This document shows positions 10,942-20,355 of a stretch of 64,000 bases of DNA, piece by piece (position 1 is the first letter of the stretch; each line of letters begins with the position of its first letter). The DNA comes from a virus: the IMG/VR virus record IMGVR_UViG_3300020213_000034, positions 1 to 64,000 of that record. One strand, given 5' to 3'. The notes below the pieces were generated by a model that was given only the letters and a program-made list of their open reading frames with translations, was not told the DNA's origin and searched no databases. The translations under genes were made by a program, and so were the position numbers.

Positions 10942-11016
10942 GCCTCAGTGATGTAGAAGTCAACATACGACCTTGCCAAGGTTGATACCAGAGTGCGAAT
11001 CTCTGCTGGGGCACCA
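10942..11016 (+). tRNA. tRNA-Gly(GCC)
   Basis: Acceptor GCCTCAG/CTGGGGC, D-stem ATGT/ACAT, anticodon stem CGACC/GGTTG with loop TTGCCAA, T-arm CAGAG-TGCGAAT-CTCTG, encoded CCA. Confidence 0.9.
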
Positions 11017-11021
11017 ATTTT

Positions 11022-11088
11022 CTGAAGACGACGGACGAGGCTTTGGCCCGGCGAAAATCCGGGATGGGTAGCGAGCGGTCGTTTTCAG
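11022..11088 (+). ncRNA. stem-closed structured RNA element, unassigned
   Basis: An 11-bp stem (CTGAAGACGAC with GTCGTTTTCAG, one G-U) encloses 45 nt containing the hairpin CCCGG-CGAAAAT-CCGGG, which has the size of a T-arm. It has no CCA and no full cloverleaf. It sits between tRNA-Gly and the next tRNA. Could be a degenerate or permuted tRNA or another small RNA. Confidence 0.4.
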
Positions 11089-11149
11089 GTGTCCGATGGT
11101 AGCGCGGGTCACTTGGCTTGCCACTGTGTCAGCGCGAGAGTAGGACCTC

Positions 11150-11238
11150 GGGTCGATTCCGATAGCAGCGAATCGTTTGGCCTTTTAAGCCAACTGGAGA
11201 AATCCACGTCGGGGGTGCAAGTCCCTCTCGGCCCACCA
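11150..11238 (+). tRNA. tRNA-Lys(TTT) with long variable arm
   Basis: Acceptor GGGTCGA/TCGGCCC, D-stem CGAT/ATCG, anticodon stem TTGGC/GCCAA with loop CTTTTAA, variable arm TGGA-GAAA-TCCA, T-arm GGGGG-TGCAAGT-CCCTC, CCA. A class II variable arm on a Lys anticodon is unusual, so identity is less certain than structure. Confidence 0.75.
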
Positions 11239-11244
11239 ATTTAT

Positions 11245-11319
11245 GGCGGTTTAGCCAAGCAGTAAGGCAGTGGCTTGCAAACCCACTATACGTCAGTGCA
11301 ATTCTGACAACCGCCTCCA
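11245..11319 (+). tRNA. tRNA-Cys(GCA)
   Basis: Acceptor GGCGGTT/AACCGCC, anticodon loop TTGCAAA with a C-C mismatch at the loop-closing position, T-arm GTCAG-TGCAATT-CTGAC, CCA. Confidence 0.88.
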
Positions 11320-11323
11320 AACT

Positions 11324-11400
11324 AGGAAGAAATGCCGGCTCGAATCCGGCGCGGTCCTACGGACCGACTCGTCTAAGCGACAAGGCGCTTCCTCTCTTTA
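11324..11400 (+). tRNA. circularly permuted tRNA-Lys(CTT)
   Basis: The 3' half comes first: anticodon stem AGGAA (11324-11328), variable GAAAT, T-arm GCCGG-CTCGAAT-CCGGC (11334-11350), acceptor GCGGTCC (11351-11357). After TAC follows the 5' half: acceptor GGACCGA (11361-11367), CT, D-stem CGTC/GGCG, C, anticodon stem TTCCT (11389-11393) and the full loop CTCTTTA (11394-11400). Every helix and joint has standard tRNA length once the halves are rejoined; the only acceptor mismatch is position 7-66 (A-G). No CCA is encoded. Its last base coincides with the first base of tRNA-Ala. How it would be circularised, cut and ligated is unknown; permuted tRNA genes are known from red and green algae and some archaea. 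Confidence 0.72.
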
Positions 11401-11475
11401 GGCCGAAAGCATTGTTAGTAATGCACCTCCCTTGCACGGAGATTTCTGCGGGTGCAACTCCCGCTCGGTCCACCA
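11400..11475 (+). tRNA. tRNA-Ala(TGC)
   Basis: Acceptor AGGCCGA/TCGGTCC (first pair A-C mismatch, one G-U), D-stem GCAT/ATGC, anticodon loop CTTGCAC, T-arm GCGGG-TGCAACT-CCCGC, CCA. It directly abuts the permuted tRNA half. Confidence 0.85.
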
Positions 11476-11481
11476 ATTTAT

Positions 11482-11539
11482 GTTCCGGCCCACCTGACTT
11501 GTGGGCTTAAATGATGTAGTCGTAAAACTAGGAACTCCA
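11482..11539 (+). other. 58-nt aberrant tRNA-like element ending in CCA
   Basis: GTTCCGG pairs with TAGGAAC (one mismatch) and is followed by T-CCA. An anticodon-arm-like hairpin CCCAC-CTGACTT-GTGGG (it would read GAC, Val) comes directly after the acceptor strand. A D-loop-like GATGTAGTCGT follows, but there is no T-arm. Either a truncated or rearranged tRNA or a processing decoy. Confidence 0.4.
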
Positions 11540-11540
11540 T

Positions 11541-11616
11541 GCATCGGTAATTCAGTGGCCAGAATGTCTGCCTTCCAAGCAGAACGTCGTGGGTTCGACT
11601 CCCACCCGGTGCTCCA
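11541..11616 (+). tRNA. tRNA-Gly(TCC)
   Basis: Acceptor GCATCGG/CCGGTGC, D-stem ATTC/GAAT, anticodon stem TCTGC/GCAGA with loop CTTCCAA, T-arm GTGGG-TTCGACT-CCCAC, CCA. Confidence 0.92.
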
Positions 11617-11622
11617 TTTCAT

Positions 11623-11707
11623 CCAGCAGTGCCAGAGCAGCAATTGGAGGTGGCTGTAAACCATCTGCCTTCGGGCTACGGAGGTGCAAGTCCTTCCTGC
11701 TGGACCA
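11623..11707 (+). tRNA. tRNA-Tyr(GTA)
   Basis: Acceptor CCAGCAG/CTGCTGG, anticodon stem GGTGG/CCATC with loop CTGTAAA, class II variable arm as expected for bacterial Tyr, T-arm GGAGG-TGCAAGT-CCTTC, CCA. Confidence 0.9.
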
Positions 11708-11714
11708 ATTTCAT

Positions 11715-11789
11715 GGGGGATTAGCTTAAATAGTAGAGCGCGTGCCTGATTAGCGCGTGGCGGTGGAGCGTTACCACCATCCCCTACCA
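11715..11789 (+). tRNA. tRNA-Ile(GAT)
   Basis: Acceptor GGGGGAT/ATCCCCT (G-U first pair), anticodon stem CGTGC/GCGCG with loop CTGATTA, T-arm GGTGG-AGCGTTA-CCACC with an atypical T-loop, CCA. Confidence 0.88.
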
Positions 11790-11795
11790 TTTCAT

Positions 11796-11869
11796 AGGGC
11801 CGACAGGTATAGTATCGGCAGGCACTCCAAACGCCTAGCGAGTTGGTGCGATTCCAACCGGCCTTGCCA
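11796..11869 (+). tRNA. tRNA-Trp(CCA)
   Basis: Acceptor AGGGCCG/CGGCCTT, anticodon loop CTCCAAA with an A-C loop-closing mismatch, T-arm GTTGG-TGCGATT-CCAAC, discriminator G, CCA. Confidence 0.87.
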
Positions 11870-11876
11870 TTTCAGT

Positions 11877-11951
11877 ATGATAGCAACGATAGCGACAGCG
11901 TATGTCGCATTGTGGATGATCCTTCTTCCGCAGTGGCGACGTAAGAACTAA
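11877..11951 (+). CDS. putative 24-residue membrane peptide in the tRNA array
   Basis: The ORF reads MIATIATAYVALWMILLP then QWRRKN: one hydrophobic helix with a basic C-terminus. It fills an otherwise empty 120-nt spacer between tRNA-Trp and tRNA-Phe. The stop is TAA. A GC-rich inverted repeat (AGGGC...GCCCT, about 11961-11984) follows. Too short to be sure it is translated. Confidence 0.3.
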   Translation: MIATIATAYVALWMILLPQWRRKN

Positions 11952-11993
11952 GACAACAACAGGGCCGCCGGACGCCGACGCCCTCTAAATTTC

Positions 11994-12069
11994 GGGACGG
12001 TAGCTGATGTAGTCATAGCGGCGGCCTGAAGAGCCGTTGAAGTTGGTGCAATTCCAACCCGTCCCACCA
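11994..12069 (+). tRNA. tRNA-Phe(GAA)
   Basis: Acceptor GGGACGG/CCGTCCC, anticodon stem GCGGC/GCCGT with loop CTGAAGA, T-arm GTTGG-TGCAATT-CCAAC, CCA. Confidence 0.9.
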
Positions 12070-12075
12070 TTTTAT

Positions 12076-12147
12076 TGCCGGGAGATTTGGAATCCTCCAG
12101 CCTCATAAGCTCGGATGAAGTGAGTTCGATTCTCACCCCAGCATCCA
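12076..12147 (+). tRNA. tRNA-Met(CAT), copy 1
   Basis: Acceptor TGCCGGG/CCCAGCA (one mismatch), anticodon loop CTCATAA, T-arm GTGAG-TTCGATT-CTCAC, CCA; 72 nt with a short D-arm. A CAT anticodon could also be initiator or Ile2; sequence alone does not decide. Confidence 0.83.
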
Positions 12148-12153
12148 TTTCAT

Positions 12154-12229
12154 CGGTCCAAAGTGTTACTTGGTCGCACACTCCGTTTGGGGCGGAATAG
12201 TCGGGGTTCAAATCCCCGTGGGCCGACCA
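12154..12229 (+). tRNA. tRNA-Pro(TGG)
   Basis: Acceptor CGGTCCA/TGGGCCG, anticodon loop TTTGGGG on stem CTCCG/CGGAA, T-arm CGGGG-TTCAAAT-CCCCG, CCA. Confidence 0.9.
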
Positions 12230-12252
12230 CCTTCGTCAGCAATATCAACCCA

Positions 12253-12609
12253 ATGCTAGTCATTTTCATTCTCATGAATATCTCCTGCCCCCCGAATTAC
12301 AAGACGTCCGTCTCCGCCAGCCCGCGCAATCAGTTCGGGATGCTTGGCGGATATACGCCTCCGCTTCAGTGGAGCGTTGATCCGACGTTTGGCTCGTTTA
12401 TTGAAGACCCGGAGCATCCCGGCGACACAACCCTCGGCTTCTTCGTTGCGACAACCGATAATGCAAGGTATGGCCAAACGACCAATTATACGGTCACGGC
12501 CCAAACGGTCAACGGGCCAGTCGTGCAAAGTGGAGGCGTGCAGCTAAGTTTTCCGGAGGCCCCGGCTGACCATATTACGGTGACCGTGGGTCTACCAGTC
12601 CCTGCCTAA
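12253..12609 (+). CDS. Ig-like/beta-sandwich protein inside the tRNA array
   Basis: 118 residues (or 111 from the second ATG at 12274, MNISCPPNYKTSVSASP). The body alternates short beta-strands (LQWSVDPTFGSF, TNYTVTAQTV, GVQLSFPEAPADHITVTVG), as in bacterial Ig-like or cadherin-like domains found on phage structural proteins. It is the only substantial protein gene within the RNA array, between tRNA-Pro(TGG) and tRNA-Pro(CGG). A virion decoration role is possible; not proven. Confidence 0.7.
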   Translation: MLVIFILMNISCPPNYKTSVSASPRNQFGMLGGYTPPLQWSVDPTFGSFIEDPEHPGDTTLGFFVATTDNARYGQTTNYTVTAQTVNGPVVQSGGVQLSFPEAPADHITVTVGLPVPA

Positions 12610-12619
12610 TGGCAGTTTT

Positions 12620-12695
12620 CCAGATGTGGTGCCAAAGGCTGGCGACTCCGCTCGGAACGGAGATTATGCAGGTTCGAGTCCTGTCATCTGGACCA
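12620..12695 (+). tRNA. tRNA-Pro(CGG)
   Basis: Acceptor CCAGATG/CATCTGG, anticodon stem CTCCG/CGGAG with loop CTCGGAA, T-arm GCAGG-TTCGAGT-CCTGT, CCA. Confidence 0.9.
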
Positions 12696-12699
12696 TTTC

Positions 12700-12777
12700 A
12701 AATCAGCGGTGAGCCGGCGCGAATCCGGCCTGCACCTCGGCCAAGGTTTTTCGCGGGCTCCGCGAATCCGCTGATTT
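12700..12777 (+). ncRNA. stem-closed tRNA-like element, possible degenerate permuted tRNA
   Basis: AAATCAGCGG (12700-12709) pairs with CCGCTGATTT (12768-12777). Inside are a perfect T-arm-like hairpin GCCGG-CGCGAAT-CCGGC (12713-12729) and a hairpin TTCGCGG-GCT-CCGCGAA. The order outer stem, 4-nt joint, T-arm is that of a permuted tRNA starting at the anticodon stem. Only about 4 bp of acceptor can form, so it may be decayed. Confidence 0.4.
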
Positions 12778-12787
12778 TCACTTTCAC

Positions 12788-12861
12788 GGGTTATTGTTGA
12801 ATGAGTATCTTGTCCCTCTGTCTAAGGGACGTAGCGAGTGCGAGTCTCGCATAGCCCGCCA
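12788..12861 (+). tRNA. tRNA-Asp(GTC)
   Basis: Acceptor GGGTTAT/ATAGCCC, anticodon stem TCCCT/AGGGA with loop CTGTCTA, T-arm GCGAG-TGCGAGT-CTCGC, discriminator G, CCA. The D-arm is weak. Confidence 0.85.
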
Positions 12862-12865
12862 TTTC

Positions 12866-12941
12866 CCACGATTAGTTCAACGGCTAGAACGGCAGTCCTA
12901 CACACTGCGCGCAGAGGGTTCGACTCCTTCATCGTGGACCA
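12866..12941 (+). tRNA. tRNA-Val(TAC)
   Basis: Acceptor CCACGAT/ATCGTGG, D-stem GTTC/GAAC, anticodon stem GCAGT/ACTGC with loop CCTACAC, T-arm GAGGG-TTCGACT-CCTTC, CCA. Confidence 0.92.
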
Positions 12942-12946
12942 TTTAT

Positions 12947-13025
12947 TGCAAGGAAGGCAAATCGGTGAACGCCGGCAGTCTGTTAAACTGTGTCGTAGAT
13001 GGTTCGACCCCATCCCTTGCAGCCA
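12947..13025 (+). tRNA. tRNA-Asn(GTT), copy 1
   Basis: Acceptor TGCAAGG/CCTTGCA, D-stem GGC/GCC, anticodon stem GCAGT/ACTGT with loop CTGTTAA, T-arm GATGG-TTCGACC-CCATC, discriminator G, CCA. Confidence 0.88.
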
Positions 13026-13029
13026 TTTC

Positions 13030-13105
13030 GGGAGTGTAGCTCAGCAGTCAGAGCATTCGGTTGTTAACCGACAGCGCGCAGGTGCGAATCCTGCCACTCC
13101 CTCCA
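13030..13105 (+). tRNA. tRNA-Asn(GTT), copy 2
   Basis: Acceptor GGGAGTG/CACTCCC, D-stem GCTC/GAGC, anticodon loop TTGTTAA, T-arm GCAGG-TGCGAAT-CCTGC, discriminator T, CCA. Confidence 0.88.
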
Positions 13106-13106
13106 T

Positions 13107-13182
13107 TCTCGCGTAGCTCAGTAGTTAGAGCGCCTCCTTGACATGGAGTAGGTCGCTGGTGCGATTCCAGCTGCGAGAACCA
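13107..13182 (+). tRNA. tRNA-Val(GAC)
   Basis: Acceptor TCTCGCG/TGCGAGA, D-stem GCTC/GAGC, anticodon loop TTGACAT, T-arm GCTGG-TGCGATT-CCAGC, CCA; only 1 nt after the previous tRNA. Confidence 0.88.
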
Positions 13183-13192
13183 TTTGAGCCCT

Positions 13193-13245
13193 TGGACAAT
13201 ACCGTGTGCCGCATCCCGGCAGCTGTGCGACCCAGCAATCCAACG
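13193..13245 (+). other. intercalated element, unassigned
   Basis: Between tRNA-Val and tRNA-Gln lie about 70 nt without a cloverleaf. TTGGA and TCCAA can close a loop containing the hairpin TGCCG-CATCC-CGGCA. No CCA. Boundaries are approximate. Confidence 0.25.
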
Positions 13246-13253
13246 GCGGTTAC

Positions 13254-13328
13254 GGGCCTATAGTGTAACAGTCAGCACACGGAGCTTTGACCTCTTGAGA
13301 CTAGGTGCAAATCCTAGTGGGCCTGCCA
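13254..13328 (+). tRNA. tRNA-Gln(TTG)
   Basis: Acceptor GGGCCTA/TGGGCCT (G-U pairs), D-stem GTG/CAC, anticodon loop CTTTGAC, T-arm CTAGG-TGCAAAT-CCTAG, discriminator G, CCA. Confidence 0.83.
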
Positions 13329-13335
13329 ATTTCAT

Positions 13336-13410
13336 GCCTCGTTCGTATATCGGCAATTACGCCGCTCTCTGAAAGCGGACAGGGTGGTTCGATTCCATCA
13401 CGGGGCGCCA
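13336..13410 (+). tRNA. tRNA-Gln(CTG)
   Basis: Acceptor GCCTCGT/ACGGGGC, anticodon stem CCGCT/AGCGG with loop CTCTGAA, T-arm GGTGG-TTCGATT-CCATC, discriminator G, CCA. Confidence 0.9.
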
Positions 13411-13413
13411 TTT

Positions 13414-13629
13414 CAATCGCGGGCATTCGCTGTCTTGTCTATCTGGCGGGATAGAGGAAGTTCGCGTCTGCACAACACGTCGAGGCAGGCTCACGCCGTT
13501 ACGACCTCACGACCGCAGCAAGCCAAACAGAACGAGGGGTGAGTGTTGCTCCTATGACTTCGGGTTGGCGCTCAGACAAATGAATGCCTCCTGCTTCGGC
13601 AGAAGACAGAAACGCGGCTACAGCGATTG
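13414..13629 (+). ncRNA. rnpB: RNase P RNA, compact bacterial type
   Basis: The 216-nt RNA has P1 CAATCGC/GCGATTG joining its ends and P2 GGGCAT (13421-13426) with ATGCCT. P3 is the hairpin CTATC...GATAG. The GAGGAAG element leads into P4: AG-(bulged U)-TCGCGT pairs with ACGCGG-CT, preserving the universally bulged U. The 3' core AGACAAATGAATGCC ... GACAGAAACGCGGCTACAG matches the bacterial consensus (E. coli AGATGAATGACTGTC ... GACAGAACCCGGCTTATCGG region). It is much shorter than the usual 350-400 nt. It lies in the array between tRNA-Gln and tRNA-Lys with the same TTT spacer after CCA. It would supply the catalytic RNA for tRNA 5' maturation; whether it uses host RnpA protein is unknown. 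Confidence 0.88.
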
Positions 13630-13639
13630 AAAACTTTAC

Positions 13640-13714
13640 GGACCACAAGCATTAACAGTGATGCACTAGGCTCTTACCCTTGGGAACACGGCGCAATACC
13701 GTGGCGGTCCACCA
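13640..13714 (+). tRNA. tRNA-Lys(CTT)
   Basis: Acceptor GGACCAC/GCGGTCC (one A-C mismatch), D-stem GCAT/ATGC, anticodon stem CTAGG/CCTTG (one T-T mismatch) with loop CTCTTAC, T-arm CACGG-CGCAATA-CCGTG, CCA. The anticodon equals that of the permuted gene at 11324. Confidence 0.82.
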
Positions 13715-13718
13715 ATTT

Positions 13719-13768
13719 CTGCCAGTTGCCGGATACCCAACGCGGTTCCCGGAACCTTCTTCTGGCAG
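13719..13768 (+). other. 50-nt stem-closed element, unassigned
   Basis: CTGCCAG and CTGGCAG form a perfect 7-bp acceptor-like stem enclosing 36 nt with the hairpin GGTTC-CCG-GAACC. There is no anticodon or T-arm and no CCA. It sits between two tRNAs at normal tRNA spacing. Confidence 0.35.
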
Positions 13769-13774
13769 GATCAT

Positions 13775-13846
13775 GGCCGGCGATTCAGCAATCCACAGAC
13801 TCTCATAAGGTCAGTGAATCCGGGGCAGCACCGGAGCCAGCTTCCA
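13775..13846 (+). tRNA. tRNA with CAT anticodon, copy 2 (Met, fMet or Ile2)
   Basis: Acceptor GGCCGGC/GCCAGCT (one mismatch), compact D-arm around TTCAGCAAT, anticodon loop CTCATAA, T-arm TCCGG-GGCAGCA-CCGGA, CCA. It belongs to the group with the unusual T-loop GGCAGCA. Confidence 0.78.
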
Positions 13847-13851
13847 ATTTC

Positions 13852-13929
13852 GGTCTAAATGCGGAGATAGTCACCGCGCATCATTGGTAATGATGAATAG
13901 GCTGGGTGCGAATCCCAGTTAGACCTCCA
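13852..13929 (+). tRNA. tRNA-Thr(GGT)
   Basis: Acceptor GGTCTAA/TTAGACC, D-stem GCGG/CCGC, anticodon stem CATCA/TGATG with loop TTGGTAA, T-arm CTGGG-TGCGAAT-CCCAG, CCA. Confidence 0.92.
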
Positions 13930-13935
13930 GTTTAC

Positions 13936-14019
13936 GGGGATATGGTGGAACGGCAGACACAGTTGCCTTAGAAGCATCCGACGAAAGTCATGGGGGTTCA
14001 AATCCCTCTATCCCTACCA
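13936..14019 (+). tRNA. tRNA-Leu(TAG)
   Basis: Acceptor GGGGATA/TATCCCT, D-stem GTG/CAC, anticodon loop CTTAGAA, variable arm GAC-GAAA-GTC, T-arm GGGGG-TTCAAAT-CCCTC, CCA. Confidence 0.92.
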
Positions 14020-14025
14020 ATTTAT

Positions 14026-14100
14026 GGCCGATTCGACAACCAGCTAAGTCCTCGCCCTTTCAAGGCGAAGTAGTGGGGGCAGCACCCACATCGGCTACCA
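14026..14100 (+). tRNA. tRNA-Glu(TTC)
   Basis: Acceptor GGCCGAT/ATCGGCT, D-stem GAC/GTC, anticodon stem TCGCC/GGCGA with loop CTTTCAA, T-arm GTGGG-GGCAGCA-CCCAC, CCA. Confidence 0.9.
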
Positions 14101-14105
14101 TTTAT

Positions 14106-14180
14106 GGCCTGTTCGTCTATAAGTCAGGACGGTTGCTTCTCAAGCATCAAAGGCGGGAGCGTTACCCGCACAGGCTACCA
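14106..14180 (+). tRNA. tRNA-Glu(CTC)
   Basis: Acceptor GGCCTGT/ACAGGCT, D-stem GTCT/GGAC, anticodon loop TTCTCAA, T-arm GCGGG-AGCGTTA-CCCGC (atypical T-loop), CCA. Confidence 0.88.
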
Positions 14181-14418
14181 TTTGATTGGAACTACCCAGA
14201 TGCGCTGGGACGTGGCAGCAGGAAGCTGAAGGGGATGCGCAAGCGAGTCGGGTCATGGCTGACAAGGGCGAAACTCCGTTACACTAAGGCACTCCCAGAG
14301 ATCGTAAGCTCTGGCTCCGCGCTGCAGGGAAGCATTTTCAAATGAGCGGTCAACCGAATGCCATCCCTCCGCTACACGGGCCTCTCGGCGGGATGCAAAA
14401 CCCGCTTTCAATCAATCT
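14181..14418 (+). other. 238-nt structured gap in the array, unassigned
   Basis: No tRNA, RNase P or tmRNA core could be folded and no convincing ORF is present. Visible hairpins: CCCAG-ATGCG-CTGGG, CAGC-AGGAA-GCTG, CCAGAG-ATCGTAAG-CTCTGG, and GCGGG-ATGCAAAA-CCCGC near 14390-14405. The conserved leader TTTCAAATnAGCGG at about 14337 also opens the element at 12697. Possibly one or two further ncRNAs. Confidence 0.35.
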
Positions 14419-14502
14419 CGGCTTGTGGTGGAACAGCAGACACAGGGCGCTCAAAACGCCCCGCCTAACCGCGTGAGGGTGCGATTCCCTCCTTGCCGAC
14501 CA
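14419..14502 (+). tRNA. tRNA-Leu(CAA)
   Basis: Acceptor CGGCTTG/CTTGCCG (two T-T mismatches), Leu-type D-arm GTGG-AACAGCAGA-CAC, anticodon stem GGGCG/CGCCC with loop CTCAAAA, long variable arm, T-arm GAGGG-TGCGATT-CCCTC, CCA. Confidence 0.85.
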
Positions 14503-14509
14503 ATTTCAT

Positions 14510-14600
14510 AGTCTCGTGTCCCAGCGGACCCGGAGGATTTATACCCCTCAGTGCGCCAGATTAGCGCCGTGACTGGGGGCAGCACCCAGCGGGACTACCA
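14510..14600 (+). tRNA. class II tRNA, anticodon TAT (Ile) most likely
   Basis: Acceptor AGTCTCG/CGGGACT. The anticodon stem GAGGA/CCCTC has a loop-closing mismatch and loop TTTATAC, giving TAT; a register one base earlier would give TTA with poorer pairing. Variable arm GCGC...GCGC, T-arm CTGGG-GGCAGCA-CCCAG, CCA. A long variable arm on an Ile tRNA is unusual, so identity is uncertain. Confidence 0.7.
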
Positions 14601-14604
14601 TTTC

Positions 14605-14676
14605 GCAGATGCCTTCAGCAAGGCAGCGGCTTTCGTAAAGCTGATGAAGTCGGGGCAGCACCGACCTTCTGCTCCA
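14605..14676 (+). tRNA. tRNA-Thr(CGT)
   Basis: Acceptor GCAGATG/CTTCTGC (one mismatch), compact D-arm CCTT-CAGC-AAGG, anticodon stem CGGCT/AGCTG with loop TTCGTAA, T-arm GTCGG-GGCAGCA-CCGAC, CCA. Confidence 0.86.
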
Positions 14677-14682
14677 TTTCAT

Positions 14683-14756
14683 GTTGGCTTGTATTCAGCA
14701 ATCCTACCGCCCTTGTAGCGCGGAAGAAGCCGGGGCAGCACCGGCAGCCAACTCCA
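14683..14756 (+). tRNA. tRNA-Thr(TGT)
   Basis: Acceptor GTTGGCT/AGCCAAC, compact D-arm around TTCAGCAAT, anticodon loop CTTGTAG with a C-C loop-closing mismatch, T-arm GCCGG-GGCAGCA-CCGGC, CCA. Confidence 0.87.
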
Positions 14757-14762
14757 TTTCAT

Positions 14763-14841
14763 CAGGGGAAGTAGTGTAACGCAGCAAACACTGGAGATTG
14801 TGAACCTCCGATTGTGGGTGCAAATCCCGCCCCCCTGACCA
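14763..14841 (+). tRNA. tRNA-His(GTG)
   Basis: Acceptor CAGGGGA/CCCCCTG (one mismatch), D-stem GTGT/ACAC, anticodon loop TTGTGAA with an A-C loop-closing mismatch, T-arm GTGGG-TGCAAAT-CCCGC, CCA. The base before the acceptor is T, not the G-1 usual for tRNA-His. Confidence 0.83.
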
Positions 14842-14845
14842 TTTC

Positions 14846-14920
14846 CCCGTCATAGCTCAAGAGACAGAGCAAGCCCCTGCGAAGGGCGAGATTGCAGTGC
14901 GAGTCTGCATGATGGGACCA
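14846..14920 (+). tRNA. tRNA-Arg(GCG)
   Basis: Acceptor CCCGTCA/TGATGGG, D-stem GCTC/GAGC, anticodon stem GCCC/GGGC with loop CTGCGAA, T-arm TGCAG-TGCGAGT-CTGCA, CCA. Anticodon GCG is atypical for bacteria, which normally use ACG. Confidence 0.87.
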
Positions 14921-14924
14921 TTTC

Positions 14925-15001
14925 GTCTCGTTACATCAATCATATAGACCCGGGCCTTCTAAGCCTTGTGGATGCTGGTGAGAGCCCAGCACGAGACACC
15001 A
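14925..15001 (+). tRNA. tRNA-Arg(TCT)
   Basis: Acceptor GTCTCGT/ACGAGAC, anticodon loop CTTCTAA, T-arm GCTGG-TGAGAGC-CCAGC with an atypical T-loop, CCA. Confidence 0.85.
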
Positions 15002-15005
15002 ATTT

Positions 15006-15073
15006 GCGGATACTTATTGGGGTAGTGCCCAAGCCCAAAGGACGGCACCAAGTCCGAGTAAGGTAATATCCGT
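15006..15073 (+). other. 68-nt stem-closed tRNA-sized element, unassigned
   Basis: GCGGATA and TATCCGT form a 7-bp acceptor-like stem at the position and spacing of a tRNA gene. Inside, GGAC-GGCACCAA-GTCC resembles a small arm, but no anticodon arm can be placed and no CCA follows. Possibly a degenerate tRNA. Confidence 0.35.
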
Positions 15074-15084
15074 GATATATTTTT

Positions 15085-15159
15085 GCTCCATTCGTCCAAT
15101 GTACAGGGCCTGCGTCTTCGGAACGCATGATGAGGGTTAGATTCCTTCATGGAGCGCCA
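15085..15159 (+). tRNA. tRNA-Arg(TCG)
   Basis: Acceptor GCTCCAT/ATGGAGC, D-stem GTCC/GGGC, anticodon stem TGCGT/ACGCA with loop CTTCGGA, T-arm GAGGG-TTAGATT-CCTTC, discriminator G, CCA. Confidence 0.9.
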
Positions 15160-15177
15160 CTTTATAAAAACCATCAC

Positions 15178-15252
15178 TCTCTTGTAGCACAAAGGACAGT
15201 GCGGCGGTTTCCTAAACCGTTGATGCGGGTTCAAGTCCCGCCGAGAGAACCA
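15178..15252 (+). tRNA. tRNA-Arg(CCT)
   Basis: Acceptor TCTCTTG/CGAGAGA, D-stem GCAC/GTGC, anticodon stem GCGGT/ACCGT with loop TTCCTAA, T-arm GCGGG-TTCAAGT-CCCGC, CCA. Confidence 0.91.
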
Positions 15253-15255
15253 TTT

Positions 15256-15341
15256 GGAGACGCAATCCAGCGGGGCTGGAACGGGCCTTGAAAACCCAGT
15301 GACGCGAAAGCGTTGGGATTCGATTTCTCGCGTCTCCGCCA
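15256..15341 (+). tRNA. tRNA-Ser(TGA)
   Basis: Acceptor GGAGACG/CGTCTCC, anticodon loop CTTGAAA, variable arm ACGC-GAAA-GCGT, T-arm TGGGA-TTCGATT-TCTCG, discriminator G, CCA. Confidence 0.89.
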
Positions 15342-15345
15342 ATTT

Positions 15346-15433
15346 GGACAGTCAATCATGCAAGGCATGGCTCGCCCTCGAAAAGCGAAGGACGCAGCAA
15401 TGCGTTGGGGTGCAACTCCTCGGCTCTCCGCCA
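15346..15433 (+). tRNA. tRNA-Ser(CGA)
   Basis: Acceptor GGACAGT/GCTCTCC (one mismatch), anticodon loop CTCGAAA, variable arm ACGC...GCGT, T-arm TGGGG-TGCAACT-CCTCG, CCA. Confidence 0.87.
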
Positions 15434-15434
15434 C

Positions 15435-15522
15435 GGAAGGTTAACTGCTCAGGGAGCAGAACGCTCTGGAAAGGCGCTTGTTCGGGAAACCGGATGGGAT
15501 TCGACTTCTCAGCCTTCCGCCA
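15435..15522 (+). tRNA. tRNA-Ser(GGA)
   Basis: Acceptor GGAAGGT/GCCTTCC, anticodon loop CTGGAAA, long variable arm, T-arm TGGGA-TTCGACT-TCTCA, CCA. Confidence 0.89.
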
Positions 15523-15526
15523 TTCT

Positions 15527-15617
15527 GGAGAGTGAACCAAGGCAGCCTTGGGATTCTTTGCTAAAGAAATCGTTCGGGCTTGACCCGGATTGGGGGCAGC
15601 ACCTACTCTCTCCGCCA
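15527..15617 (+). tRNA. tRNA-Ser(GCT)
   Basis: Acceptor GGAGAGT/TCTCTCC (last pair T-T), anticodon stem around TTCT/AGAA with loop TTGCTAA, long variable arm, T-loop GGCAGCA, discriminator G, CCA. Last RNA gene of the array. Confidence 0.85.
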
Positions 15618-15630
15618 CTTCGAAACAAAA

Positions 15631-16248
15631 ATGAACATCAAGAACGTGCTCGGGCTACCCGTGCTTTCGCTCAACAAGAATTGGCAGGCTTACGACGACA
15701 GGAAGAACGTCAGAAGGGCATTCGAGGACATGACGTCCGGCATCGACCTACCAGCATTCTACGGGATGGACATCGAGCTTCACCCTGACGGCACGCTGAT
15801 CTACGCCAATCCGTGCGACATGGATGATTGGGAGCAGCTGGCCGTGCGTCCCGGGGACGACTTCATCTTCACTGGCCGCAGGAACATCCGCGCACCCCGG
15901 GTCATCATCAGCCGCAACTACGACAAGACCTCGGTCAAGCCAATCAAGCTTACCTACTCGGCCATCAAGAAGAGGGACAAGCAGCAGTGCCAATACTGCC
16001 GCCAGTTCTTTCCGCTCGAGGAGCTGAATGTTGACCACGTAACCCCCCGTCACCACGGCGGCGTGGACTCGTGGGATAACCTTGTATGCTCGTGCATCCC
16101 GTGCAACAGCAAGAAGGGGCACAAGCTGAACGAGGAAATCGGCTACGTTCCGCTGAATTCGCCCAAGCAGCCGTTGCCGCTTCCGGAAACATTCATTTCG
16201 AACGCCAAGCACCCCAGCTGGATTCCGTTCATGGTGGCCGCGAAATAG
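15631..16248 (+). CDS. HNH endonuclease
   Basis: 205 residues. The C-terminal HNH/beta-beta-alpha-metal domain has CQYCRQFF (zinc pair), LNVDHVTPRHHGG (metal/catalytic His) and NLVCSCIPCNSKKG (second Cys pair and final motif). The N-terminal 130 residues are unassigned. The position directly after the tRNA array fits a packaging-associated or homing-type HNH nuclease. Ends in TAG. The start follows 13 nt after the last CCA. Confidence 0.85.
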   Translation: MNIKNVLGLPVLSLNKNWQAYDDRKNVRRAFEDMTSGIDLPAFYGMDIELHPDGTLIYANPCDMDDWEQLAVRPGDDFIFTGRRNIRAPRVIISRNYDKTSVKPIKLTYSAIKKRDKQQCQYCRQFFPLEELNVDHVTPRHHGGVDSWDNLVCSCIPCNSKKGHKLNEEIGYVPLNSPKQPLPLPETFISNAKHPSWIPFMVAAK

Positions 16249-18173: not shown

Positions 18174-18204
18174 GGCCCGGGTTTTGCGCCATTTTCACCA
18201 CGAA

Positions 18205-20355
18205 ATGGTTAAAAATCCGAAAAAACTGGCCAAATCGAATCCTTTTGGGGTAGCCGATCCTTATGCATCAAGTATCGGGAATTCGCCGGAAGTCTCCGAG
18301 AAGACACTAGACTCCGACAATCGGGTCATCACCAGTGTCGATCAGGCCATTTCGGTCATCGACACGCTGCAGTGGGACGCGCAGAAGCTCGTCAAGAATG
18401 CGGCAAAGATCACGTCGTTGAAACAAGGCCGCAAGCCTTACGACAGCAAGACCCTGCAGAAGCAGGGCAAGGGCTACAAGACGAACATGTCGTCTGGCAC
18501 CTACGCAACGACGCTGCGCCGCGTTGCCCCGAAACTCTACATGCCGTTGCTCAGTGCGAGCACTCTGACCGCGGCGGAACTGCCCGCCGGAACCCCGAAC
18601 GGGGAACAGAAGACGGAACACTACCGCGAGACGATCACCAACGCCATCCGCTCGTGGCCTCGCTGGAGCACCTTCGTCCGACTCCTGACTCAGGAAGTCG
18701 TTGACTACGGTTTCGTGTTTTCTGCCTTCACCGACCGCTATGAGTGGCGCCCGCACCTGTGCCGCATGGACCGCGGATTCGTCCCGGCCGGCACGGAGGT
18801 CATGGATTTGGAGCCGGCATTCTTCGCCCTGCAGTGGGACTACCAGCCGAGCCAGCTGCTGAAGATCGCCAAAGACGCAGCCGATGCCGGCGTTGATGGA
18901 TGGGACAAGGAAGCTGTGGCCAAGGCCGTGCAGCAGTCCAAGCCTTCCACCGCCCCGACCCGCGAGCCAACGGGCTGGCGCAAGTGGGAGGAGCTGGTGC
19001 GCGAGCAAGTGTGGAGCTACGCGACGTCCAAGAATTTCCGCGTCGTGGAGTCGATCCACCTTTTCGCCCTCGAGAATGATGGCAAGGTGTCTCACTACAT
19101 CGTCCTCAAGGAAGCTGAGGAGGATTTCCAGCTGCTATACGAAAAGGTTGATGCCTTCGATAGCATGGCTAATGTCGTCACGCCGCTGACGTTCAACTCG
19201 ACCGACGGCACCATCCACGGCTCGTGGGGCGCCGGCCATCTTCTTTACGACTTGGGCGGTCTGCAGGAAAAGATTTTCTGCGACATGGTGGATAATCTGC
19301 GCAACGCCAACAAGCAGCGCCTTCAGGTCAAGAATCCGGCTGACATCAACGACGTCAAGCAGGTGGTAAACGACACCGAGGTCATCGTTTCCGGCGCTGA
19401 GTTCGCCAACAATTTGGGTGGCGTGCAGCAGAATGTCGATGCCTACCAAGTGCTCCGCAACCTGCTCTTGCAGGCCATGGACTCAAAGGTCGGTGCGTAT
19501 GTTCCGCCAATCCCGATGCAGAGTTCGGACATCAAAGCGGCACAGGTCAACGCCGCCATGATTCAGGAGAAGGAGATTTCGGATGACGCCACCGAACACT
19601 ATCTCGCTCAGCTTGCTTGGGTAATCTGGGCAATAGAGCGCAGGCTCACCGACCCGGATTCTCCGCAGCCGAAAGCCAAGGAAGTCCGCGAGGCCCTGCT
19701 CAAGGTCCTGACGAAGGATGAGATCGAAATTCTGCGCAGCCAGCCGGCCATTCGCTCCGTCACCAACTTTACGCCGCTTGCGGCCCAGTCCCGCGCCCAA
19801 TTTGCCACGCAATTTCTCGGCAATCAGCTCTTCAAGCAGACCGAGCTGGCGAAGCTCATTGCCAACGGCGTTCCTTCCGGAGGCACGCGCCTTGCCGAGG
19901 CAACAGTTGTGCAGGATGGAGACCAGACGCAGACGACTGCGGCCCAGCGCCAGCAGTTGCTCGAGAACGCCGTCATGACCCTCGGTCAGGACGTCCCGGT
20001 GCTTATCACCGACAACCACTGGGTCCACATGCAGACCATGAAGGGACCGCTGACTCAGGCCGTTCAGGCCAAGATGCTTGTTCAGGGCAAGGCCGGGCTC
20101 CGTCACTACACGGCACACTGGACTGCGGGCGTCGCCCAGAAGACGCTGCCCGACGAAGCAATCAACAAGGAGAAGTCATTCATTGCTGACGTCGAGAAGG
20201 CGCTTGCCGCAATCGAGCAACAGCAGCAGATGCAGCAAGCCCAGCAGGCCCAACAGCAGCAGATGCAGCAGATGCAGGGGGGCGGTGGCGGTGGCGAGGT
20301 TGCTCAGATGCCTCCTGATATGCAGCAGATGCAGCAGATGCAGCCCGGCGCTTAA
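18205..20355 (+). CDS. portal (head-tail connector) protein
   Basis: 716 residues. Position at the head of the morphogenesis block, large size and segments such as [20 protein letters not shown] and [20 protein letters not shown] (typical clip/wing regions) fit the podovirus portal family. The last 60 residues are Gln/Met-rich (repeated QQM) with a Gly run, an unusual low-complexity tail probably facing the capsid interior. The start is ATG at 18205 after CACGAA. A TTGACC element lies 32 nt upstream. Confidence 0.8.

What the first reader, a model, noticed from the sequence alone, without database searches (positions are those of the whole stretch)
13775..15617. Two co-varying tRNA elbow types: T-loop GGCAGCA with a compact CAGC D-arm
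At least six tRNAs (13775, 14026, 14510, 14605, 14683, 15527) have T-loop GGCAGCA instead of TTCRAnT. All six carry CAGC in a shortened D-loop, whereas tRNAs with ordinary T-loops do not show this compact D-arm. T54, T55 and A58 are missing, so the normal G18G19-Psi55C56 elbow contact cannot form. This suggests an alternative tertiary elbow, or tRNAs designed to escape host modification or cleavage enzymes.
Basis: partly seen in the sequence, partly recalled or inferred. Interest (0 to 1): 0.72.

Follow-up and report, generated by a model that had tools for sequence, protein, structure and literature searches.

The report
Phage tRNAs with a rewired elbow
A phage carries 38 tRNA genes, 26 of which replace the near-universal bases that hold the tRNA 'elbow' together with different bases that change in matched pairs, so the tRNA shape is probably kept by an alternative set of contacts that current gene finders often miss.

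Summary
The six GGCAGCA-loop tRNAs are real and at the stated coordinates, each with CAGC in its D-arm. The proposed link to a compact D-arm fails: it is absent in relatives, and an ordinary tRNA (12076) has the shortest D-arm region in the array. The real link is wider. Of 38 tRNAs in the array (10942-15617), 26 have G at T-loop position 55. All 25 of these that keep C56 carry A18-G19 in the D-loop; those with T55-C56 carry G18-G19.

In about 1,500 non-redundant viral tRNAs, three tertiary pairs change together: 18-55 (G-U or A-G), 19-56 (Watson-Crick, all four kinds), and 54-58 (U-A, G-G, A-U, A-A). The elbow is therefore rebuilt from other pairs, not lost. These tRNAs keep synthetase identity elements (Ala G3-U70 in 19/19), so decay is unlikely. 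Verrucomicrobiota chromosomes carry supernumerary arrays that are about 94% G55, beside ordinary housekeeping tRNAs.

Most likely these are working tRNAs with a rewired elbow, made without U54, U55, G18 or A58. Why it is selected (independence from host modification, evasion of host enzymes, or drift) is unresolved. ARAGORN missed all 95 GGCAGCA tRNAs tested. I found no earlier description in the open library searched.

The parts
13775..13846 (+). tRNA-Met/Ile2 (CAT), T-loop GGCAGCA, D-arm GATT-CAGC-AATC
14026..14100 (+). tRNA-Glu (TTC), T-loop GGCAGCA, D-loop AACCAGCTAA (normal length)
14510..14600 (+). tRNA with TAT anticodon and long variable arm, T-loop GGCAGCA, D-arm GTCC-CAGC-GGAC
   Evidence: same type in other viral contigs
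14605..14676 (+). tRNA-Thr (CGT), T-loop GGCAGCA, D-arm CCTT-CAGC-AAGG
14683..14756 (+). tRNA-Thr (TGT), T-loop GGCAGCA, D-loop TTCAGCAA
15527..15617 (+). tRNA-Ser (GCT), T-loop GGCAGCA, D-arm CCAAGG-CAG-CCTTGG
11715..11789 (+). tRNA-Ile (GAT), T-loop AGCGTTA (A54-T58, G55), D-loop AAATAGTA (A18)
14106..14180 (+). tRNA-Glu (CTC), T-loop AGCGTTA, D-loop with AAGT (A18)
13640..13714 (+). tRNA-Lys (CTT), T-loop CGCAATA, D-loop TAACAGTG (A18); 83% identical to a viral T55/GG sister
14925..15001 (+). tRNA-Arg (TCT), T-loop TGAGAGC (G55, A56), D-loop AATCATATA (AT at 18-19: U19-A56)
15085..15159 (+). tRNA-Arg (TCG), T-loop TTAGATT (T55, A56), D-loop AATGTACA (GT at 18-19: U19-A56)
10942..11016 (+). 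tRNA-Gly (GCC), TGCGAAT / AG
11150..11238 (+). tRNA-Lys (TTT), TGCAAGT / AG
11245..11319 (+). tRNA-Cys (GCA), TGCAATT / AG
11400..11475 (+). tRNA-Ala (TGC), TGCAACT / AG, keeps G3-U70
11623..11707 (+). tRNA-Tyr (GTA), TGCAAGT / AG
11796..11869 (+). tRNA-Trp (CCA), TGCGATT / AG
11994..12069 (+). tRNA-Phe (GAA), TGCAATT / AG
12788..12861 (+). tRNA-Asp (GTC), TGCGAGT / AG
13030..13105 (+). tRNA-Asn (GTT), TGCGAAT / AG (second Asn tRNA, at 12947, has the ordinary elbow)
13107..13182 (+). tRNA-Val (GAC), TGCGATT / AG
13254..13328 (+). tRNA-Gln (TTG), TGCAAAT / AG
13852..13929 (+). tRNA-Thr (GGT), TGCGAAT / AG
14419..14502 (+). tRNA-Leu (CAA), TGCGATT with D-loop GAACAGCAGA; compare 13936
14763..14841 (+). 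tRNA-His (GTG), TGCAAAT / AG
14846..14920 (+). tRNA-Arg (GCG), TGCGAGT / AG
15346..15433 (+). tRNA-Ser (CGA), TGCAACT; D-loop GCAAGGC holds both AG and GG
11541..11616 (+). ordinary elbow: tRNA-Gly (TCC), TTCGACT / GG
12076..12147 (+). ordinary elbow: tRNA-Met (CAT), TTCGATT / GG, with the shortest D region
12154..12229 (+). ordinary elbow: tRNA-Pro (TGG), TTCAAAT / GG
12620..12695 (+). ordinary elbow: tRNA-Pro (CGG), TTCGAGT / GG
12866..12941 (+). ordinary elbow: tRNA-Val (TAC), TTCGACT / GG (loops read by eye)
12947..13025 (+). ordinary elbow: tRNA-Asn (GTT), TTCGACC / GG
13336..13410 (+). ordinary elbow: tRNA-Gln (CTG), TTCGATT / GG
13936..14019 (+). ordinary elbow: tRNA-Leu (TAG), TTCAAAT with D-loop GAACGGCAGA
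15178..15252 (+). ordinary elbow: tRNA-Arg (CCT), TTCAAGT / GG
15435..15522 (+). ordinary elbow: tRNA-Ser (GGA), TTCGACT / GG
15256..15341 (+). probable tRNA-Ser (TGA), ordinary loop TTCGATT with GGGG in the D-loop; read by eye only, not found by any tool
   Evidence: sequence

Best explanation
The six tRNAs are part of a larger set of working tRNAs whose D-loop/T-loop elbow has the usual architecture but is built from different tertiary pairs that change together. Shown by sequence covariation: 18-55 is G-U or A-G; 19-56 is any Watson-Crick pair; 54-58 is U-A, G-G, A-U or A-A, with a purine (mostly A) at 60 when 54 is A or G. GGCAGCA with CAGC is one combination (G54-G58, G55-A18, C56-G19). 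Inferred: the pairs form physically, the tRNAs are charged and used, and the phage array supplies a tRNA set during infection. Also inferred: because U54, U55, A58 and G18 are absent, such tRNAs cannot be modified there by TrmA, TruB, TrmI or TrmH, and so fold without those host marks and escape factors that read them.
For: Window: 25 of 25 tRNAs with G55-C56 carry AG in the D-loop or D-arm; 9 of 9 scored tRNAs with T55-C56 carry GG, as do 12866 and 15256 by eye. The two A56 tRNAs have U at 19. Viral set, with D-loop-selected hits removed: T55-C56 gives GG-only 448 and AG-only 5; G55-C56 gives 1 and 336, Fisher p about 5e-220. 19-56 variants: TT-GA 28/30, TA-GT 11/14, GA-AT 5/5, GG-AC 7/8, TG-GC 4/6, GT-AA 4/4; the TA, TG and GT rows are not significant alone. 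54-58: T-A 1223, G-G 107 of 109 G54, A-T 106, A-A 29; 54-58 has the highest mutual information within the loop. Bacterial arrays repeat the pattern: AG 245/247, GG 27/27. Near sisters change on both sides, e.g. Thr TAAAGGTA/ATC to TAAAAGTA/GGC at 81% identity. Identity elements are kept in G55 tRNAs: Ala G3-U70 19/19 and 9/9; Pro C1-G72 26/27 and 10/10; acceptor, anticodon and T stems about as intact as in T55 tRNAs. Reversed-sequence control: 3 calls at score 42 or more against 1883. T5 tRNA-Ile1 (TTTAAAT with GA) is annotated as convertible to an amber suppressor.
Against: No expression, charging, structure or modification data. Position 18 cannot be aligned with certainty, so the test counts dinucleotides in the D-loop; about 12% of G55 loops also hold a GG elsewhere. 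The finder requires an encoded CCA in the main set, T33 and paired stems, so decayed copies are under-sampled, and part of the stem intactness is by construction. In the window itself G55 tRNAs have fewer perfect stems than T55 ones (acceptor 0.69 vs 0.90; n = 26 and 10). The viral loci were recruited by G55 patterns, so prevalence cannot be read from them. Covariation counts are not corrected for phylogeny beyond removing similar sequences. No promoter was recognised for the array.
Confidence: 0.8

Rival explanations
1. Decaying tRNA copies: supernumerary array tRNAs are pseudogenes drifting away from consensus. Similar clusters in Planctomycetes have been called degenerate (PMC4807772).
For: Arrays are redundant with the housekeeping set; several window tRNAs have stem mismatches; standard tools miss them.
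Against: Decay would not produce matched changes at three tertiary pairs, retained Ala G3-U70 and Pro C1-G72, or full anticodon diversity.
Confidence: 0.07
2. Neutral compensatory drift: the tRNAs work, but the elbow pairs wander along a neutral network because phage and array tRNAs are under weaker constraint. No benefit is gained from the change.
For: Many different combinations exist and mix within one genome; all isotypes are affected; two Asn tRNAs in the window (12947, 13030) have opposite types.
Against: Unmatched intermediates are rare (5 of 453 and 1 of 337). The G55 fraction per array is overdispersed 5.7-fold, and Verrucomicrobiota arrays are 419 of 447 G55. Common descent of arrays could explain part of this.
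Confidence: 0.4
3. Selected evasion or independence: the elbow is changed so that host factors that read U54, U55, G18 or A58 (modification enzymes, or defence or competition tRNA nucleases) no longer act, or so that tRNAs made in a burst fold without modification.
For: The target bases are absent (direct sequence). Whole arrays share the change while housekeeping tRNAs of the same cell do not. Published work treats tRNA arrays as putative anti-defence systems (PMC12803027) or as stress reserves (Anabaena trn operon, PMC10272220).
Against: No nuclease that needs the T-loop bases was identified here. Mycobacterium and Acidiphilium plasmid arrays keep ordinary elbows, so the change is not needed for an array.
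Confidence: 0.4
4. One reading: a compact CAGC D-arm paired specifically with GGCAGCA as a special elbow.
For: Four of the six window tRNAs have a 4-nt CAGC loop; all six contain CAGC.
Against: D-region length does not depend on T-loop type in relatives; C at 20 is no more specific than the usual pyrimidine there; 12076 is compact with an ordinary loop.
Confidence: 0.03

Closest known systems
Canonical tRNA elbow (G18-Psi55, G19-C56, T54-A58; reviews PMC4810234, PMC7912444)
   Same: Same positions pair; 19-56 stays Watson-Crick; G53-C61 mostly kept; loop of 7.
   Different: 18-55 becomes A-G, 54-58 becomes G-G, A-U or A-A, and 19-56 can be A-U, U-A or C-G; U54, U55, G18 and A58 are lost.
A54-A58 pairs of eukaryotic tRNA-Ala(AGC) and initiator tRNA (PMC7566577)
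   Same: Substituted 54-58 pair that goes with a purine at 60.
   Different: There 18-55 and 19-56 are not reported as changed; reported as not observed in bacteria; here G-G and A-U dominate.
tRNA-Pyl and type II mitochondrial tRNAs (PMC7609411)
   Same: Lack G18G19 and TPsiC, and are functional.
   Different: There D-loop/T-loop contacts are lost or special to one lineage; here they are replaced pair by pair across all isotypes.
tRNA array units of mycobacteria, and the Anabaena trn operon (PMC5966550, PMC12803027, PMC10272220)
   Same: Dense accessory tRNA set for about 20 amino acids on phages, plasmids or chromosomes, often with an HNH gene.
   Different: M. intracellulare and Acidiphilium arrays have ordinary elbows; a Nostoc plasmid array has 2 of 29 tRNAs of the new type.
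Phage T5 tRNA-Ile1 (AY543070)
   Same: 19-56 changed from G-C to A-U with matched bases; annotated as able to become an amber suppressor.
   Different: 18-55 and 54-58 are ordinary.

Membership tests
tRNA (cloverleaf) | Acceptor, D, anticodon and T stems with 7-nt anticodon and T loops, CCA end | tested here: met
   36 cloverleaves by the finder, plus 12866 by ARAGORN and 15256 by eye
tRNA (cloverleaf) | Rfam tRNA model at gathering score, or an ARAGORN call | tested here: not met
   None of the six; ARAGORN finds 0 of 95 GGCAGCA tRNAs but 97% of ordinary ones. Read as a limit of the models.
Canonical tRNA elbow | G18-U55 and U54-A58 | tested here: not met
Canonical tRNA elbow | Watson-Crick 19-56 pair | tested here: met
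   By covariation; physical pairing not testable here
Functional aminoacylated tRNA | Isotype identity elements (Ala G3-U70, Pro C1-G72) | tested here: met
   19/19 and 26/27 in viral G55 tRNAs; window Ala 11400 has G3-U70
Functional aminoacylated tRNA | Expression and charging | not testable with these tools
   -
tRNA array unit | High density of clustered tRNAs for most amino acids | tested here: met
   38 tRNAs for all 20 amino acids in 4.7 kb
Anti-defence tRNA set | Protects against a tRNA-cleaving defence | not testable with these tools
   -

The most novel reading that the evidence does not exclude
A second, array-wide tRNA elbow code exists in phages and bacterial tRNA arrays, kept distinct from the host set by selection, so that a complete parallel tRNA set is invisible to host enzymes or defence nucleases that read the canonical D-loop and T-loop bases.
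Probability: 0.3. Interest if true: 0.9.

Novelty: new variant of a known kind. Interest (0 to 1): 0.72.

Why it matters
G18-Psi55, G19-C56 and T54-A58 are taught as near-invariant. Viral and array tRNAs provide a natural experiment of over a thousand sequences in which all three pairs are exchanged in matched fashion. This defines which tertiary pairs an elbow can use, gives starting points for orthogonal tRNAs that do not depend on TruB, TrmA or TrmH, and makes the question of why phages carry tRNAs testable by swapping elbow types. It also exposes an annotation gap: ARAGORN missed every one of 95 GGCAGCA tRNAs, so phage tRNA sets are under-counted and phages may look as if they lack isotypes that they have.

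Tried and rejected
Compact D-arm as the linked feature: rejected. Antiparallel D-loop/T-loop kissing helix (GC with GC): considered; position 20 is the usual pyrimidine in both classes, so no support. Relatives of the phage by the 723-aa protein at 18184-20355: none found. Host inference from a window protein: only Ig-like repeat matches in Verrucomicrobiota, uninformative. BLAST with single GGCAGCA tRNAs against cultured phages: no useful tRNA hit. Cultured phages examined (T5, DLP_6, EspYZU15, teqdroes, YS40_Isch, DSS3_MAL1) have nearly all ordinary T55 elbows, with a few 19-56 and 54-58 variants and one CGCGATA/AG tRNA-His in EspYZU15. Anabaena PCC 7120 delta plasmid and mycobacteriophage Bxz1 records are not held. 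The key suppressor-tRNA selection paper on the 54-58 pair (Zagryadskaya 2003) is not held, so overlap with its results could not be checked.
Full report
What is there. The window is most of a 64.6 kb virus record. From 10942 to 15617, on the + strand, lies a dense tRNA array. ARAGORN tRNAs, and Rfam at gathering score matches 18. I wrote a finder that ignores T-loop and D-loop sequence and asks only for stems, loop sizes, T33 and CCA. It finds 36 cloverleaves. With 12866 (ARAGORN) and one Ser tRNA read by eye (15256-15341) the total is 38, with anticodons for all 20 amino acids. Each has T-loop GGCAGCA and CAGC in the D-arm.

The real correlation. Twenty-six of the 38 have G at T-loop position 55 (loops TGCRANY, GGCAGCA, AGCGTTA, CGCAATA, TGAGAGC). 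All 25 with G55-C56 carry AG in the D-loop or D-arm, where GG is normal. The tRNAs with T55-C56 carry GG. Two Leu tRNAs show it cleanly: 13936 has GAACGGCAGA with TTCAAAT, and 14419 has GAACAGCAGA with TGCGATT. Two Arg tRNAs with A56 have U at 19: 15085 (GT with TTA) and 14925 (AT with TGA). So 18-55 changes from G-U to A-G, and 19-56 from G-C to U-A.

Test in other viruses. Three pattern scans of viral contigs, two of them blind to the D-loop, fetched 316 loci. At score 44 or more the finder calls 1830 tRNAs there, against 1 in reversed sequence; 1548 remain after removing similar ones. After removing the tRNAs that the first scan selected by their CAGC, T55-C56 gives GG-only 448 and AG-only 5, and G55-C56 gives 1 and 336 (Fisher p about 5e-220). 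19-56 follows Watson-Crick rules in rare variants: TT with GA 28/30, TA with GT 11/14, GA with AT 5/5, GG with AC 7/8, TG with GC 4/6, GT with AA 4/4. The counts for TA, TG and GT are too small or too close to background to be significant alone. 54-58 is T-A 1223, G-G 107 of 109 with G54, A-T 106, A-A 29, C-A 27. It has the highest mutual information of any loop pair, 0.79 bits, followed by 54-60 and 58-60. Position 60 is mostly A with G-G and A-T and is T or C with T-A. The modules are separable: G-G and A-T at 54-58 occur with T55/GG as well as G55/AG. Near sisters with the same anticodon change on both sides, for example the window Lys 13640 (TAACAGTG, CGCAATA) against L014 (TTAAGGTGA, GTCAGTA) at 83% identity.

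The compact D-arm claim fails. D-region length does not depend on T-loop type: 16 nt or less in 3.6% of TTC tRNAs, 3.1% of TGC and 4.0% of GGC. In the window, 14026 has a 10-nt D-loop, and the ordinary Met tRNA 12076 has the shortest D region.

Functional or decayed? In viral G55 tRNAs, Ala tRNAs keep G3-U70 in 19/19 (non-Ala 4/445), Pro tRNAs keep C1-G72 in 26/27, and discriminator bases match those of T55 tRNAs. Bacterial-array G55 tRNAs show 9/9 and 10/10. Such constraints are hard to explain in pseudogenes. In T5, tRNA-Ile1 has TTTAAAT with GA, and the GenBank record says that it can be turned into an amber suppressor. That supports a functional 19-56 A-U pair, though not A18-G55 or G54-G58.

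Bacterial arrays. A genome scan for GGCAGCA tRNAs returned 49 loci, most in Verrucomicrobiota. Many hold dense arrays of 8 to 27 tRNAs in which 419 of 447 tRNAs are G55, with the same covariation (AG 245/247; GG 27/27). In one 5.96 Mb chromosome, all 18 matches to the G55 T-loop pattern lie in the array at 1,305,094-1,307,869 and none elsewhere, while high-scoring tRNAs and T55 T-loop matches are dispersed. About 6 of 240 sampled genomes of the phylum hold such an array. These arrays are therefore accessory second sets. A Nostoc plasmid array, similar in layout to the Anabaena trn operon that is induced by translational stress (PMC10272220), has 2 of 29 tRNAs of the new type; M. intracellulare and Acidiphilium plasmid arrays have ordinary elbows.

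Mechanism. [quoted passage not shown] In the variant, an A18-G55 pair could reverse donor and acceptor roles, and G54-G58 could form a purine-purine pair like the longer A54-A58 pair of eukaryotic tRNA-Ala, which also goes with a purine at 60 (PMC7566577). These geometries are inferred. With U54, U55, A58 and G18 absent, modification there by TrmA, TruB, TrmI and TrmH is impossible by definition. Whether this is the benefit, or a by-product of compensatory drift, is open. Overdispersion of the G55 fraction among arrays (5.7-fold) and the rarity of unmatched intermediates lean toward selection, but common descent of arrays is not excluded.

Novelty. Searches of the open-access library found no description of A18-G55 or G54-G58 elbows in phage or array tRNAs. 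Older suppressor-tRNA selection work on 54-58 is not held and may contain related combinations. ARAGORN finds 97% of ordinary tRNAs in the fetched loci, 5% of G54-G58/G55 tRNAs and 0 of 95 with GGCAGCA, which may explain why the class has been overlooked.

Noticed in passing
window 14510-14600; L010, L013, L027, L032, L064, L081; DLP_6 L319:1698: tRNAs with anticodon UAU (Ile AUA) and a long variable arm recur in viral contigs, with both elbow types (12 T55 and 7 G55 non-redundant). Long variable arms are normally Leu, Ser, Tyr or Sec, so the amino acid they carry is unclear.
   Followed up: partly
L031 (CTA), L022 and L095 (TCA), L335:2672 (CTA): Suppressor-type anticodons on tRNAs with GGCAGCA loops; those in L031, L022 and L095 also have long variable arms.
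   Followed up: no
window 12947-13105: Two tandem tRNA-Asn (GTT) genes have opposite elbow types; Leu, Gln, Gly, Met and Ser isotypes also occur in both types in the window.
   Followed up: partly
L394:13193-15223: A TROVE (Ro60-like) domain gene follows directly after the tRNA array of Brevifollis gellanilyticus; Ro proteins bind structured and misfolded RNAs.
   Followed up: no
window 15580-16245; L401:4948; L402:6125; L403:12791: HNH endonuclease genes sit next to or within tRNA arrays in the window and in Nostoc, M. intracellulare and Acidiphilium plasmids.
   Followed up: no
L323-L371: Verrucomicrobiota (including Akkermansia, Prosthecobacter, Brevifollis) carry accessory tRNA arrays with recurring gene order and almost only G55 tRNAs.
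   Followed up: partly
L320:8852: Cultured Cronobacter phage EspYZU15 has a tRNA-His with loop CGCGATA and AG in the D-loop, a possible laboratory model for the A18-G55 elbow.
   Followed up: no
window 12240-12620, 13411-13640, 14181-14418: Stretches of 200-400 bases between tRNAs without recognised content; they may hold decayed tRNAs or small genes.
   Followed up: no
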